From positions 1-64,000 of the forward strand of contig JALHMM010000024.1 of assembly GCA_022844045.1 (NCBI GenBank): a DNA stretch of 64,000 nucleotides, written 5' to 3'. Made by a program: the position numbers and the translations under genes. Shown in pieces: positions 8,247 to 55,181 of this stretch. How positions within the stretch are numbered: position 1 is the first letter of the stretch; the number at the start of each line of letters is the position of its first letter. The notes under the pieces are model-generated. The model made no database searches. It was not told where the DNA came from and saw nothing but the letters and a program-made list of their open reading frames with translations. This DNA is from Reyranellaceae bacterium (GTDB lineage: Bacteria; Pseudomonadota; Alphaproteobacteria; Reyranellales; Reyranellaceae).

Positions 8247-8358
8247 GCAGAGCAACTCCCTAGAGGATCGCGTGAACCGATCATAACCCTACGCGGCGCC
8301 GGAACTTACCGCTAGGCTGTGCGCCGTAACGAAGGGCATCGCATTTGGCTGGCTCTTC

Positions 8359-8480
8359 CCTTCCCCCGGAGGGGGAAGGTGCCCGCAGGGCGGAAGGGGG
8401 ATGTTGAAGACGAACAGAGGAGTCCGTCTTCGACATCCCCCTTCCGTCGCTTCGCGCCACCTTCCCCCTCCGGGGGAAGG
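8359..8480. repeat. Palindromic intergenic repeat, short form (122 bp)
   Basis: Both ends are self-complementary hairpins (8359-8379 and 8460-8480, CCTTCCCCC...GGGGAAGG) that also mirror each other. Inside are 22-base arms at 8391-8412 and 8425-8446 with one mismatch. Near-copies lie at 15020-15139 and 30608-30729. There is no coding content. It lies between divergent genes. Confidence 0.9.
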
Positions 8481-8513
8481 GAGAACTGACAGCCGAAACG
8501 GGGAGGGGCGGCC

Positions 8514-9692
8514 ATGCGCATCATCGGCATCGAGGATCTGCACTGCAACGCCGGCTGGCGGGTTTTCTCGTTCCTCAAGATCACCACCGACGAGGGCCTC
8601 ATCGGCTGGTCGGAGTACAACGAGAGCTACGGCAGCGGCGGGCTGACCGCGGTGATCCACCGTCTGGCGCATCACCTGATCGGACAGGATCCGCGGCCGG
8701 TCGAGCGCATCAGCTCGCAGCTCTACGCCATCACGCGTCAGGCGCCGGGCGGCATGAACGCCCAGGCGATCGCGGCGATCGAGAATGCGCTGCTCGATGT
8801 CAAGGCCAAGGCGCTGGGCATACCGGTCTACGCGCTGTTCGGCGGCCCGGTGCGCGATCGCCTGCCGCTCTACTGGTCGCATTGCGGCAGCTATCGCCTC
8901 AACAATGCCGAGGTGATGGGGCTCGAGCCGGTACGCGGCTACGACGATCTGGTGAAGCTCGGCAAGCACGTGAAGGAGCGCGGCTTCAAGGCGCTGAAGA
9001 CCAACATCTTCATGTTCGACCGCGGCAAGCCCTACATGCATCAGCCCGGCTTCGGCCGGAACCCGGGCTGGCCCGAGCTCAACGTCGACAACCGCATCCT
9101 CGGCGCGATCACCGACGGCCTGGCCGCCTTCCGCCAGGGCGGCGGCAAGGAGATGGGCATCCTTCTCGACACCAATTTCAACTTCAAGACCGATGGCTAT
9201 GTGAAGGTGGCGCGCACGGTCGAGCCCTATGACCTGTTCTGGCTGGAGATCGACACCTACGATCCCGAAGGCCTCGCCTATATCAGGCGCAAGGCCAACA
9301 TGCCGATCGCCTCCTGCGAGTCGCTGTTCGGTCGTCGCGGCTTCCGGCCGTTCTTCGAGAACCGCTCGATGGATACCGCGATCGTCGACGTGCCGTGGAA
9401 CGGGCTGCTCGAGTCGGTGAAGATCGCGGCGATGGCCGAGGCCTACGAGATCAACTGCGCGCCGCATAACTTCTACGGCCACCTGTCGACCCTGATGAGC
9501 GCGCATTTCTGCGCCGCGATCCCCAACTTCCGGGTGATGGAGATCGACATCGACGACGTGCCATGGAAGGACGACCTCGTTACTCATCCGCCGGTGATCG
9601 AGAACGGCGAGCTCATCGTGCCGACGCGTCCCGGCTGGGGCGCCGACGTCGACGAGGAAGCCGTGCGCGCCCACCCCGCGCGCGCCGGCTGA
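8514..9692 (+). CDS. Mandelate racemase/muconate lactonizing enzyme family protein (copy 3)
   Basis: A 392-residue enolase-superfamily enzyme, clearly of a different subgroup from copies 1 and 2. Candidate residues are Lys162 in LKTN, Asp219 in LDTN, Glu245 in WLEID (where the others have FEEP), Glu269 in SCES and His318 in APHNFYGH. All three metal ligands are present, so it should be active. There is an insertion between the first lysine and the Asp strand (about residues 165-205, GKPYMHQPGFGRNPGW), unusual for the family and perhaps part of the active-site lid. A GGGGAGGGG ribosome-binding site precedes the start. It stands alone between a repeat element and lptD. Likely a sugar-acid dehydratase; substrate unknown. 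Confidence 0.9.
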   Translation: MRIIGIEDLHCNAGWRVFSFLKITTDEGLIGWSEYNESYGSGGLTAVIHRLAHHLIGQDPRPVERISSQLYAITRQAPGGMNAQAIAAIENALLDVKAKALGIPVYALFGGPVRDRLPLYWSHCGSYRLNNAEVMGLEPVRGYDDLVKLGKHVKERGFKALKTNIFMFDRGKPYMHQPGFGRNPGWPELNVDNRILGAITDGLAAFRQGGGKEMGILLDTNFNFKTDGYVKVARTVEPYDLFWLEIDTYDPEGLAYIRRKANMPIASCESLFGRRGFRPFFENRSMDTAIVDVPWNGLLESVKIAAMAEAYEINCAPHNFYGHLSTLMSAHFCAAIPNFRVMEIDIDDVPWKDDLVTHPPVIENGELIVPTRPGWGADVDEEAVRAHPARAG

Positions 9693-9731
9693 AGCAGGGC
9701 GCATTGATCTCCGGCGGTGCGTGCGCATCTA

Positions 9732-9880
9732 CCTTCCCCCGCTGGCGGGGGAAGGTGGCGCGAAGCGCCGGATGGGGGTGGCTCTCGCGGCCAGACGCGG
9801 TCTTCGAAAGACATCGCCTCCGTCTTCGACAGCCACCCCCATCCGCCCTTCGGGCACCTTCCCCCGCCAGCGGGGGAAGG
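9732..9880. repeat. Palindromic intergenic repeat, long form (149 bp), abutting lptD
   Basis: Terminal hairpins lie at 9732-9755 and 9857-9880 (CCTTCCCCCGC...GCGGGGGAAGG), with an inner stem at 9770-9783 and 9831-9844. It belongs to the same family as the copies at 8359, 12901, 15020, 30608 and 54972. The end of its right arm, GGGGGAAGG, sits nine bases before the proposed lptD start codon. Confidence 0.88.
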
Positions 9881-9889
9881 TATTGGTGG

Positions 9890-12064
9890 GTGGCGCTGCT
9901 CCTATCACTGCTCGCCTGGTGCGGCGTGGCGCAGGCGCAGACGGCGCCGCCGCGCGGTGGCGGCGAGACGCTGGTGTTGGCCAACGAGGTGATCCGCGAG
10001 GCGGGCGGCCGCCGTCTGATCGCGCGCGGCATGGTCGAGCTGCGTCGCGGGGCGCGCTCGATCATCGCCGACGAGATCGTCTACGATTCGAGCAGCGACC
10101 GCCTGCGCGCCGCCGGCAATGTCGCGGTGATCGACGACAACGGCGAGGTGGTGTTCTTCTCCGACGTCGACGTCGACACCGCCTTCACCGACGGCGCCGG
10201 ACGCGACATCCGCATGGTGCTGCGGCGCAATTGGCGGGTGCGCGCCAGCGATGGCCAGTTGAGCACCAAGGATGGCCGCCAGTTCGCGCTGCGACAGGCC
10301 CAGGCGACGCCCTGCGACGAGTGCGCGAAGAATCCCGATCGCCCGCCGGTCTGGCGCATCACCGCGCGCCGTGTCGTCGTCGACGAAAGCTCCAAGGATT
10401 TCATCTACAACAACGCGGCGCTGGAGATGTTCGGCGTGCCGGTGGCCTACACGCCGTACTTCACCCACCCCGCGCCCGACGTGCGCCGGCGCACCGGCCT
10501 GGTGTCGTTCAATGTCGGCCGCAACGCCTTGCGCGGCTTCTACGGCGAGCCGCAGTACTTCATCGCTATCGACGACAGCTCCGATCTGTCGCTGCGCCCG
10601 CGCCTCTACGTGGAGCGTCCGACGCGACCGCTATTCGACGTGGAACTGCGCAAGAGAGGCGACACCTTCGATGCCTCGCTGCGGCCGCGTTTCGCCTATG
10701 ACGGCGGCCGGCTGCGCTATCTGCTGCGTGGTGCGCTGAACTGGGACATCGACCCGAACTGGCGCGCGGTGGCTGACGCCGACTATTCCAGCGACCTCAC
10801 TTTCCATCAGGACTTCAGTGTCGTCCGCCAATCCCTCGCCCGTTCGGTGGCGGCGGTCGAGCGCTTCGCCCCGCAATCCTTCCTGCAGTTCCGTGCCGCG
10901 CATTACCAGAATCTCTATATCGACACCTTTGACAGCCGCGCGCCCACCGCCGGTTTCCAGGCGCTCTCGCACCAGCGCATCCCGGTGCCCGATGCGGGTG
11001 GCACACTGGAACTGCGCACGCTGTTGCGCGAGACGCTGCGCGAGGGCGGGCCCTCGACCACCAGCGCGATCCAGACCGTGGAGTGGCAGCGCCGCGCGCT
11101 GATCGGCGGCGGTCAGGTCCTGGGTTTCGGCGCGCAGCTCATGGGCCGGCTCGATCGCACCACATCGGGACCGGCGGACATCACCGATCCGCTGTCCAGC
11201 GGCCTGCCGATCGCCGCGCGTGGCTGGGCTTCGAGCGACGCGACCGGCTGGCTCGACTGGTCCTATCCCTTCGTCGCGCCGGTGGGCGAGCGCGGCTCCC
11301 TGGTGATCGAGCCCAAGGCGATGCTGATCGGCTCGGGCAGGATCGCCGGCACGCGACCGACTCTCAACGAGGATTCGCGCAGCCTCGAAATGGACTTCAG
11401 CTCGATCTTCTCGCTGAACCGCCACACCGGCTTCGATCGGCGCGAGAGCGGGCTGCGCGTGGTCTATGGCCTGCGCTCGACCCTGGGCTTCGCCACGGGC
11501 GAGCAGCTGACGGTCGAGGCCGGCCAGCTACGCTACCTCGCGGGCAACGATAACTTCGGCGGGCGCCTGCGCGCGCCCGGCGACAAGGCCTCGGACTGGG
11601 TGCTCGGCATACGCGCCGACATCGGCCAGCCGCTGTCGCTCGACCTGTACGGCCGCTTCGATGCGCGCGATTTCGGCGTGGTGCAGGCCTATGTCGCGCC
11701 CACTGTGCGGCATCAGCTCTTCGGTCGCGAGGCGAGCCTGACGGTGGGCTATGCGCATGAAGGCTCGGCCAGTCCGCTCGGCCGCTATACGGGTGTGGCG
11801 CCGCCCCGTGACTCCGTCATCGCATTGGCGCGCTTGCCGATCGGCGAGCACTGGACCATCGATGGCGGCGCCCGTTACGACATCACCCGCCGCAATTTCA
11901 CCGACTACCAGGCCGGCATCACCTACGAGGACGAATGCTTCGTCGTTCGCGTGCTGGGCCAGCGCGGCCTCTATTTCGCCGGCGTCAGCACCGACGCCGC
12001 CGCGCGCGTCCTCGTGCAGGTGACGTTCAAGCAGCTCACGAGCCTGGGCTTCCAGTTCAACTGA
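9890..12064 (+). CDS. lptD: LPS-assembly protein LptD (outer-membrane LPS translocon)
   Basis: A 724-residue outer-membrane protein that inserts lipopolysaccharide into the outer leaflet together with LptE. From the GTG at 9890 there is a short signal (ALLLSLLAWCGVAQAQ), an OstA/LptA-like beta-jellyroll (about residues 25-180: LVLANEV, IVYDSSSDRLRAAGNV), the CDEC cysteine pair followed by NPDRPPVWRI, then a long barrel ending in the outer-membrane signature Phe-Asn (LGFQFN). The YEDECF motif near the end is typical of alphaproteobacterial LptD. The frame stays open upstream through the palindromic repeat into the previous gene, but those residues look non-coding; GTG 9890 with GGGGAAGG ahead is the best start. 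It is not next to surA, pdxA or ksgA, its usual neighbours. Confidence 0.88.
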   Translation: MALLLSLLAWCGVAQAQTAPPRGGGETLVLANEVIREAGGRRLIARGMVELRRGARSIIADEIVYDSSSDRLRAAGNVAVIDDNGEVVFFSDVDVDTAFTDGAGRDIRMVLRRNWRVRASDGQLSTKDGRQFALRQAQATPCDECAKNPDRPPVWRITARRVVVDESSKDFIYNNAALEMFGVPVAYTPYFTHPAPDVRRRTGLVSFNVGRNALRGFYGEPQYFIAIDDSSDLSLRPRLYVERPTRPLFDVELRKRGDTFDASLRPRFAYDGGRLRYLLRGALNWDIDPNWRAVADADYSSDLTFHQDFSVVRQSLARSVAAVERFAPQSFLQFRAAHYQNLYIDTFDSRAPTAGFQALSHQRIPVPDAGGTLELRTLLRETLREGGPSTTSAIQTVEWQRRALIGGGQVLGFGAQLMGRLDRTTSGPADITDPLSSGLPIAARGWASSDATGWLDWSYPFVAPVGERGSLVIEPKAMLIGSGRIAGTRPTLNEDSRSLEMDFSSIFSLNRHTGFDRRESGLRVVYGLRSTLGFATGEQLTVEAGQLRYLAGNDNFGGRLRAPGDKASDWVLGIRADIGQPLSLDLYGRFDARDFGVVQAYVAPTVRHQLFGREASLTVGYAHEGSASPLGRYTGVAPPRDSVIALARLPIGEHWTIDGGARYDITRRNFTDYQAGITYEDECFVVRVLGQRGLYFAGVSTDAAARVLVQVTFKQLTSLGFQFN

Positions 12065-12900: not shown

Positions 12901-13055
12901 CCTTCTCCCCGCGCAGGCGGGGAGAAGGTGCCGAGCGTTAGCGAGGCGGATGAGGCGCTTCCTCGCGCAACGACCAATGCCGTCGTTGTTGGGGCACCGC
13001 GAAGCCCCTCATCCGCCCTTCGGGCACCTTCTCCCCCGCCTGCGCGGGGAGAAGG
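12901..13055. repeat. Palindromic intergenic repeat, long form (155 bp)
   Basis: Terminal hairpins lie at 12901-12928 and 13027-13055 (CCTTCTCCCCGC...GCGGGGAGAAGG). The inner half contains GAGGCGGATGAGG answered by CCTCATCCGCC. It fills almost the whole gap between the divergent nadX and gnd genes, so their promoters must overlap or lie inside it. Confidence 0.88.
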
Positions 13056-54903: not shown

Positions 54904-54971
54904 CATCCGTTGCTTGTGGCTCAGCGCTTTTGCCTGCCGCTACGGCGGAGATGTCGCGTATGGACTTCTTC

Positions 54972-55125
54972 CCTTCTCCCTGCGAAGGCGGGGAGAAGGT
55001 GCCCGAAGGGCGGATGAAGGGCTTCGCGGAGGCTCGACGACGGCGATGGTGGTTGTAGCGCGAGCAAGCCCCTCATCCGCCTCGCTGGCGCTCGGCACCT
55101 TCTCCCCGCCTTCGCGGGGAGAAGG
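54972..55125. repeat. Palindromic intergenic repeat, long form (154 bp)
   Basis: Terminal hairpins lie at 54972-54999 and 55098-55125 (CCTTCTCCCTGCGAAGGCGGGGAGAAGG type). The inner half has GGCGGATGAAGGGCTT answered by AAGCCCCTCATCCGCC. It is closest to the copy at 12901-13055, including the CTCATCCGCC block. Confidence 0.88.
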
Positions 55126-55181
55126 GGAGAAAGCAATATGCGACCGCCTTCCACCTTCGGATCAAGCCAGCCACATGCGGG

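What the first reader, a model, noticed from the sequence alone, without database searches (positions are those of the whole stretch)
9732..9900. Repeat element appears to provide the lptD ribosome-binding site
There is no ATG in the lptD frame between the repeat and the signal peptide; the best start is a GTG nine bases after the repeat's terminal GGGGGAAGG. An essential outer-membrane gene seems to have lost its original leader to a mobile-type repeat and now relies on it. As the same GGGGGAAGG can be locked in a hairpin, translation may depend on folding.
Basis: partly seen in the sequence, partly recalled or inferred. Interest (0 to 1): 0.5.

Follow-up and report, generated by a model that had tools for sequence, protein, structure and literature searches.

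The report
Common palindromic repeat abutting lptD start
A very common palindromic DNA repeat lies just upstream of the likely start of an outer-membrane transport gene, where its end could help ribosomes begin; the same arrangement recurs at other genes in these bacteria, and nothing shows that the gene lost an older leader because of it.

Summary
A 153-nt palindromic repeat (9730-9882) ends in GGGGGAAGG (9872-9880), nine bases before GTG 9890; no in-frame ATG lies between repeat and signal peptide.

The repeat is one copy of a high-copy family (596 exact arm hairpins). Its ends lie 5-12 nt before called starts in 15 of 122 start-facing cases, against 2 of 106 for three other palindrome families. 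Its AAGG falls in the spacing window this genus uses. A weak Shine-Dalgarno role is plausible and would not be unique to lptD.

Against it:
- the motif is fully paired in all six modelled transcripts holding the whole right hairpin;
- relative G002 keeps the repeat but has GCG, not GTG;
- four g5 relatives without the repeat there also seem to start lptD with GTG, so "lost leader" is unsupported.

"Essential" is doubtful: LpxC and LpxB were not found in the four genomes of the genus, though LptD, LptF/G and LptC were.

In G002 the repeat's inner part is inverted, which places an ATG in the lptD frame.

The parts
8514..9692 (+). upstream gene, mandelate racemase/muconate lactonizing enzyme family
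   Evidence: PF13378 and PF02746; ORF 392 aa
9704..9706 (+). alternative in-frame start TTG upstream of the repeat; at the same codon distance (87) in G000, G001 and G002
9730..9882 (.). interspersed palindromic element, longer type (type B, GCTGGC arm loops), 153 nt
9730..9757 (.). left arm, itself a 12-bp hairpin
9755..9757 (+). alternative in-frame GTG in the left arm; at the same codon distance (70) in G000, G001 and G002
9758..9854 (.). inner 97 nt (with an inner stem 9769-9799 / 9815-9845); inverted in relative G002
9855..9882 (.). right arm, itself a 12-bp hairpin whose 3' strand holds GGGGGAAGG
9872..9880 (+). GGGGGAAGG, candidate weak Shine-Dalgarno motif; predicted paired in transcripts that hold the whole right hairpin
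   Evidence: duplex -8.5 kcal/mol with a standard 16S tail typed from recall; P(unpaired) 0.000-0.001 in six transcripts
9890..9892 (+). most likely start codon GTG of lptD in this genome; also in G001; GCG in G002; a GTG at the same codon distance (25) in G003
9890..9937 (+). signal-peptide-like stretch VALLLSLLAWCGVAQA, without a basic residue (judged by eye, no predictor run)
   Evidence: sequence
9890..12064 (+). lptD homologue, 724 aa
   Evidence: PF04453; partial matches to two NCBIfam LptD models, far below their cut-offs

Best explanation
The feature is one copy of a high-copy, REPIN/MITE-like palindromic element that reached the lptD upstream region before the four known genomes of the genus diverged. 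LptD is most likely started at GTG 9890. The outer end of the right arm puts AAGG nine bases before it, inside the spacing window this genus uses, so it can act as a weak Shine-Dalgarno site once the hairpin is opened or cut. It is an instance of a recurrent, tolerated arrangement rather than a special rescue of an essential gene. Shown: the element, its copy number, the spacing, the recurrence near called starts. Inferred: that GTG 9890 is used, that AAGG pairs with the ribosome, and that something (RNase III cutting the perfect arm stem is my guess) exposes it.
For: Element anatomy and 596 exact arm hairpins in the genome. SD-like 4-mers before 1166 ATG genes cluster at 5-10 nt spacing: 131 at 9 nt against 18-31 at each spacing from 13 to 26 nt. 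Exact ends of this family lie 5-12 nt from called starts in 15 of 122 cases (14.6 expected for uniform placement), while 0-4 nt holds 0 (9.1 expected); three other palindrome families have 2 of 106 at 5-12 nt (Fisher p = 0.004 pooled, 0.04 and 0.02 in parts). An earlier count with looser arms gave 14 of 122 at 5-12 nt (16.2 expected) and 1 at 0-4 nt (10.1 expected). The 15 do not include lptD itself, whose start my gene caller put at 9926. Between G000 and G001 the first 24 codons from GTG 9890 change mostly at third positions (2,1,6), the 32 inner-element codons do not (3,3,2).
Against: The motif is paired in all six modelled transcripts that contain the whole right hairpin. G002 keeps the motif but lacks the GTG. 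Two of the other palindrome families have SD-like ends themselves (GGGGAGAGG, GGGGAGAAGG) and yet hold only 1 of 57 places at 5-12 nt, so SD content alone does not explain the pattern. For five near-start elements an orthologous upstream region without that arrangement could be read: one has a clear SD, four do not (by eye), so such genes may not need one. The signal peptide would have no basic residue. The 16S tail was assumed: its pattern did not match in this genome. Start calls come from a home-made gene finder. The family contrast was chosen after seeing the distribution.
Confidence: 0.45

Rival explanations
1. LptD starts at GTG 9890 but without any Shine-Dalgarno help; the repeat is an incidental neighbour, as elsewhere between genes.
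For: The four g5 LptD genes have a likely GTG start, no arm of this family within 450 nt upstream and no clear SD before that GTG (SD judged by eye). Only 56% of ATG genes have an SD match of 4 or more, against 40% after shuffling. The motif is sequestered. Four of five orthologous upstream regions show no clear SD.
Against: This family is found at SD spacing more often than three other palindrome families.
Confidence: 0.35
2. Translation starts inside or upstream of the repeat (TTG 9704 or GTG 9755), so the repeat encodes part of a long N-terminal region that supplies the missing basic residues; in G002 an in-frame ATG inside the inverted repeat would serve.
For: The frame is open through the element in all four genomes of the genus; TTG is at -87 and GTG at -70 codons in three of four. 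In G002 the only in-frame starts near the signal peptide are TTG (-21) and GTG (-18), both inside its hydrophobic stretch. 'GRYWW' would add a basic residue before the hydrophobic core.
Against: Open frames are expected: 84% of all frames through 111 elements are open. The 12 substitutions between G000 and G001 in 9704-9889 hit codon positions evenly (3,4,5), with 5 synonymous codons against 2.9 expected by chance, too few to decide. G003 has in-frame starts at -89 and -82 but none at -87 or -70.
Confidence: 0.17

Closest known systems
REPIN (REP doublets forming hairpins; PMC3116915, passages seen)
   Same: two inverted palindromic arms around a spacer, intergenic, hundreds of arm copies, single-arm copies also present
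   Different: no consistent GTAG tag; Y1 transposase genes exist in all four genomes of the genus, but the held flanks show no intact arm pair of this family
Correia repeat enclosed element / NEMIS (PMC2649163 and PMC2229807, passages seen)
   Same: about 150 bp, inverted-repeat ends, found 5' of genes; RNase III substrate there; a table note says one ATG begins with the last A of the element; element reading frames fused to genes are reported
   Different: no sequence comparison made; the documented effects in the passages are promoters, IHF binding and RNase III; the words 'ribosome' and 'Shine' do not occur in PMC2649163, nor 'ribosome binding' and 'Shine-Dalgarno' in PMC2229807 (main texts as held)
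RIME and other alphaproteobacterial palindromic repeats (recalled, not compared)
   Same: large intergenic palindromes in Alphaproteobacteria
   Different: not tested here

Membership tests
REPIN | two inverted copies of a short palindrome forming a larger hairpin | tested here: met
   111 paired elements in the contigs scanned, arms allowed 2 mismatches
REPIN | extragenic, high copy | tested here: met
   596 arm matches; none of 62 units of the first scan lay inside a called gene by the script's rule; one search left out units inside genes before counting
REPIN | RAYT/Y1 transposase in the genome, flanked by the same repeat | tested here: inconclusive
   Y1_Tnp found in 4 of 4 genomes, 6 places. 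Held flanks (loci of 2.2-3.3 kb) of the six show no intact arm pair of this family; two carry a different palindrome and one single 8-nt match each
REPIN | GTAG tag at one end of the palindrome (GTAG-type REPs) | tested here: not met
   of 454 arm ends (both sides of each exact arm), 205 continue inward as TGC or TGG; of the other 249, 66 continue as TAG (giving GTAG) and 77 as TAA
CREE/NEMIS | RNase III cleavage of the transcribed stem | not testable with these tools
   28-nt perfect arms would be a suitable substrate (inference)
LptD | PF04453 domain over its cut-off | tested here: met
LptD | standard lipid A pathway present, so that LPS would be the cargo (a functional expectation) | tested here: not met
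   LpxC and LpxB found in 0 of 4 genomes of the genus; LpxA, LpxD, LpxK and others not searched

The most novel reading that the evidence does not exclude
The element is an invertible start-site module: its perfect 28-nt arms let the 97-nt inner part flip in place, and the flipped form in G002 puts an ATG in the lptD frame, 65 codons upstream of the conserved ETLV motif, where the GTG start is absent. Orientation would then decide which N-terminus LptD receives.
Probability: 0.06. Interest if true: 0.65.

Novelty: new member of a known kind. Interest (0 to 1): 0.3.

Why it matters
If the element end really works as a Shine-Dalgarno site, a repeat family could rewire translation at many genes at once, and its tolerance at 5-12 nt could be tested with simple reporters. 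The comparison also shows that intergenic sites in this genus can hold one palindrome in one species and another in the next, and that the element has probably flipped in place at lptD. Otherwise the finding is an ordinary intergenic repeat.

Tried and rejected
Rejected: a second LptD copy in this genome (one match only; the genome is a draft). Rejected: a known RNA family; the 8 Rfam hits are microRNA precursor models, all below their gathering scores, explained by the palindrome. No sigma-70-like promoter and no intrinsic-terminator-like site was found in 9600-9950 (other promoter types are not covered). Coding test on the element: too few substitutions to decide. The 16S tail pattern gave no match in this genome, so the anti-SD is assumed. 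Literature: one search listed one unrelated paper; two searches listed none; some searches gave listings, and of the papers listed I opened passages of PMC3116915, PMC2229807, PMC3733652 and PMC2649163 only. These listings and passages showed me no case of a repeat supplying a Shine-Dalgarno site; that is not proof that none is in print.

Limits: gene starts come from my own order-3 codon model, which put the lptD start at 9926. The near-start statistics rest on partial genomes: stretches of 7 contigs of G000 (0.78 Mb), 9 of G001 (0.91 Mb) and 2 of G003 (1.06 Mb). One search left out genes with under 30 or over 1500 nt of upstream space and motif ends without a partner within 220 nt. One search shows 21 elements that I chose from 31 with both flanks colinear; one of its rows printed empty. 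Of the 15 near-start cases only a few starts were compared with orthologues. The family contrast was made after seeing the distribution, so its p-values are exploratory. The G003 element at lptD was recognised by eye; the script found only one of its arms.

Full report
What is there. The window lies in a draft genome (6.4 Mb in 144 contigs, 91.9% complete, 5.8% contaminated). Two close relatives are recorded as Alphaproteobacteria MAGs. Between a mandelate racemase-like gene (8514-9692) and an lptD homologue lies a 153-nt palindromic element, 9730-9882: two perfectly complementary 28-nt arms, each itself a hairpin, and an inner stem. GGGGGAAGG (9872-9880) is followed, nine bases on, by GTG 9890. 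After ATG 9563, inside the upstream gene, no in-frame ATG occurs before the signal peptide; TTG 9704 and GTG 9755 are other possible starts.

The element is common. The pattern CCTTCCCCC-N(1-8)-GGGGGAAGG matches 596 places in this genome; 76, 119 and 536 in the three other genomes of genus g1; 291, 94, 15 and 99 in the four g5 genomes; 35 in the one g2 genome; 0-3 in each of 65 g3 genomes; 0 in the one g4 genome. In the contigs fetched, 111 paired elements (arms allowed two mismatches) fall into a shorter type A and a longer type B (12 of 136 nt or more), to which this one belongs.

The lptD site in relatives. All four genomes of the genus carry an element here. G001 (LptD 88% identical) has the same element, motif and GTG. 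G002 (81%) has the same length and arms, but its inner 97 nt match the reverse complement of G000 (87 of 97, no gaps) far better than the forward strand (70 identities, 22 mismatches, 10 gaps). Among 110 other elements its best match is the G000 lptD copy, inverted (0.90); the G001 lptD copy (0.86) is hardly better than the nearest non-lptD copy (0.85). In-place inversion is the simplest reading because the flanks and end points are the same; replacement by another copy is not excluded. At the GTG position G002 has GCG. G002 is a 67%-complete draft, so a one-base error is possible. G003 (81%) has a degenerate element of the other type (by eye; the script found one arm) and GTGs 27 and 25 codons before the ETLV motif; that of G000 is at 25.

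Does the repeat supply the ribosome-binding site? For: SD-like 4-mers before 1166 ATG genes peak at 5-10 nt spacing, and 9 nt is inside that window. Exact ends of this family lie 5-12 nt before called starts in 15 of 122 start-facing cases, close to the 14.6 expected for uniform placement, while 0-4 nt holds none (9.1 expected). Three other palindrome families have 1 of 49, 0 of 31 and 1 of 26 at 5-12 nt (Fisher p = 0.004 pooled). A looser earlier count gave 14 of 122 and one case at 0-4 nt. Against: two of those three families have SD-like ends themselves, so SD content is not the whole reason. The motif pairs with a standard 16S tail at -8.5 kcal/mol, near the best 5% of random 13-mers (-8.2), but it is unpaired with probability 0.001 or less in all six modelled transcripts that include the whole right hairpin; transcripts starting at 9868 or 9872 free it in part (0.35, 0.40). 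For five near-start elements whose orthologous upstream region could be read, four orthologues show no clear SD and one does (by eye).

Did lptD lose an original leader? The data do not support it. The four g5 LptD genes (29-30% identical) have no arm of this family within 450 nt upstream, and their likeliest start, judged by the signal peptide, is GTG. In one (L007) this GTG is the first start codon after an in-frame stop; in L006 and L008 in-frame ATGs exist but lie more than 100 nt further upstream; L005 has none in its open frame. More distant LptD genes mostly have ATG at the signal peptide (7 of 9 loci; one GTG, one unclear, by eye). So the change to GTG may be older than the repeat at this site. 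What may be special to this genus is that no basic residue follows the GTG.

Is the gene essential for LPS? LptD matches occur in 4 of 4 g1, 4 of 4 g5 and 2 of 65 g3 genomes (10 of 75). LptF/G matches occur in all g1 and g5 genomes plus two g3 (10 of 75), LptC in 4 of 4 g1. LpxC is over its cut-off in 1 of 75, with one weaker match, both in g3; LpxB is found in 0 of 75. Both searches ring in the E. coli and Caulobacter controls. Other lipid A genes, and LptA, LptB and LptE, were not searched. These bacteria thus appear to keep an Lpt machine without the standard lipid A pathway, and essentiality cannot be assumed.

Start-site alternatives. The frame is open through the element in all four genomes, but 84% of all frames through 111 elements are open. 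From GTG 9890 on, differences between G000 and G001 fall mainly at third codon positions (68,33,177 over 724 codons), while in the inner element they do not (3,3,2). This favours a start near 9890 but rests on few upstream substitutions.

Verdict. A real and correctly described arrangement, most likely a weak, recurrent case of a common repeat abutting a start codon. The special claims (lost leader, essential gene, folding switch) are not supported. The probable in-place inversion and the Lpt genes without LpxC and LpxB are the more interesting leads.

Noticed in passing
genomes of the family: LptD and LptF/G are kept in genera g1 and g5 (and LptC in g1, the only genus searched for it), although LpxC and LpxB are not found there; 63 of 65 g3 genomes show no LptD. 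The cargo of this Lpt machine is unknown.
   Followed up: partly
L004, about 3631-3479 on the reverse strand, against window 9730-9882: The 97-nt inner part of the element is inverted in relative G002 compared with G000 and G001, with the same arms and flanks.
   Followed up: partly
contigs of G000, G001 and G003: Stop-facing ends of the element cluster just after stop codons: 89 of 166 lie 5-16 nt from a called stop.
   Followed up: no
orthologous sites shown: The same intergenic site can hold different palindrome families in different species (CCTTCCCCC, CTCTCCCC and CTGTCAT...ATGACAG types).
   Followed up: partly
window 8357-8482: Another copy of the element, upstream of the racemase-like gene; the site is empty in G001 and G003, and the AGGGGCGG stretch before the ATG is the same in all three.
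   Followed up: yes
window 54953-55144 and 12901-13055: Copies of a different palindrome family with CCTTCTCCC-type arms.
   Followed up: no
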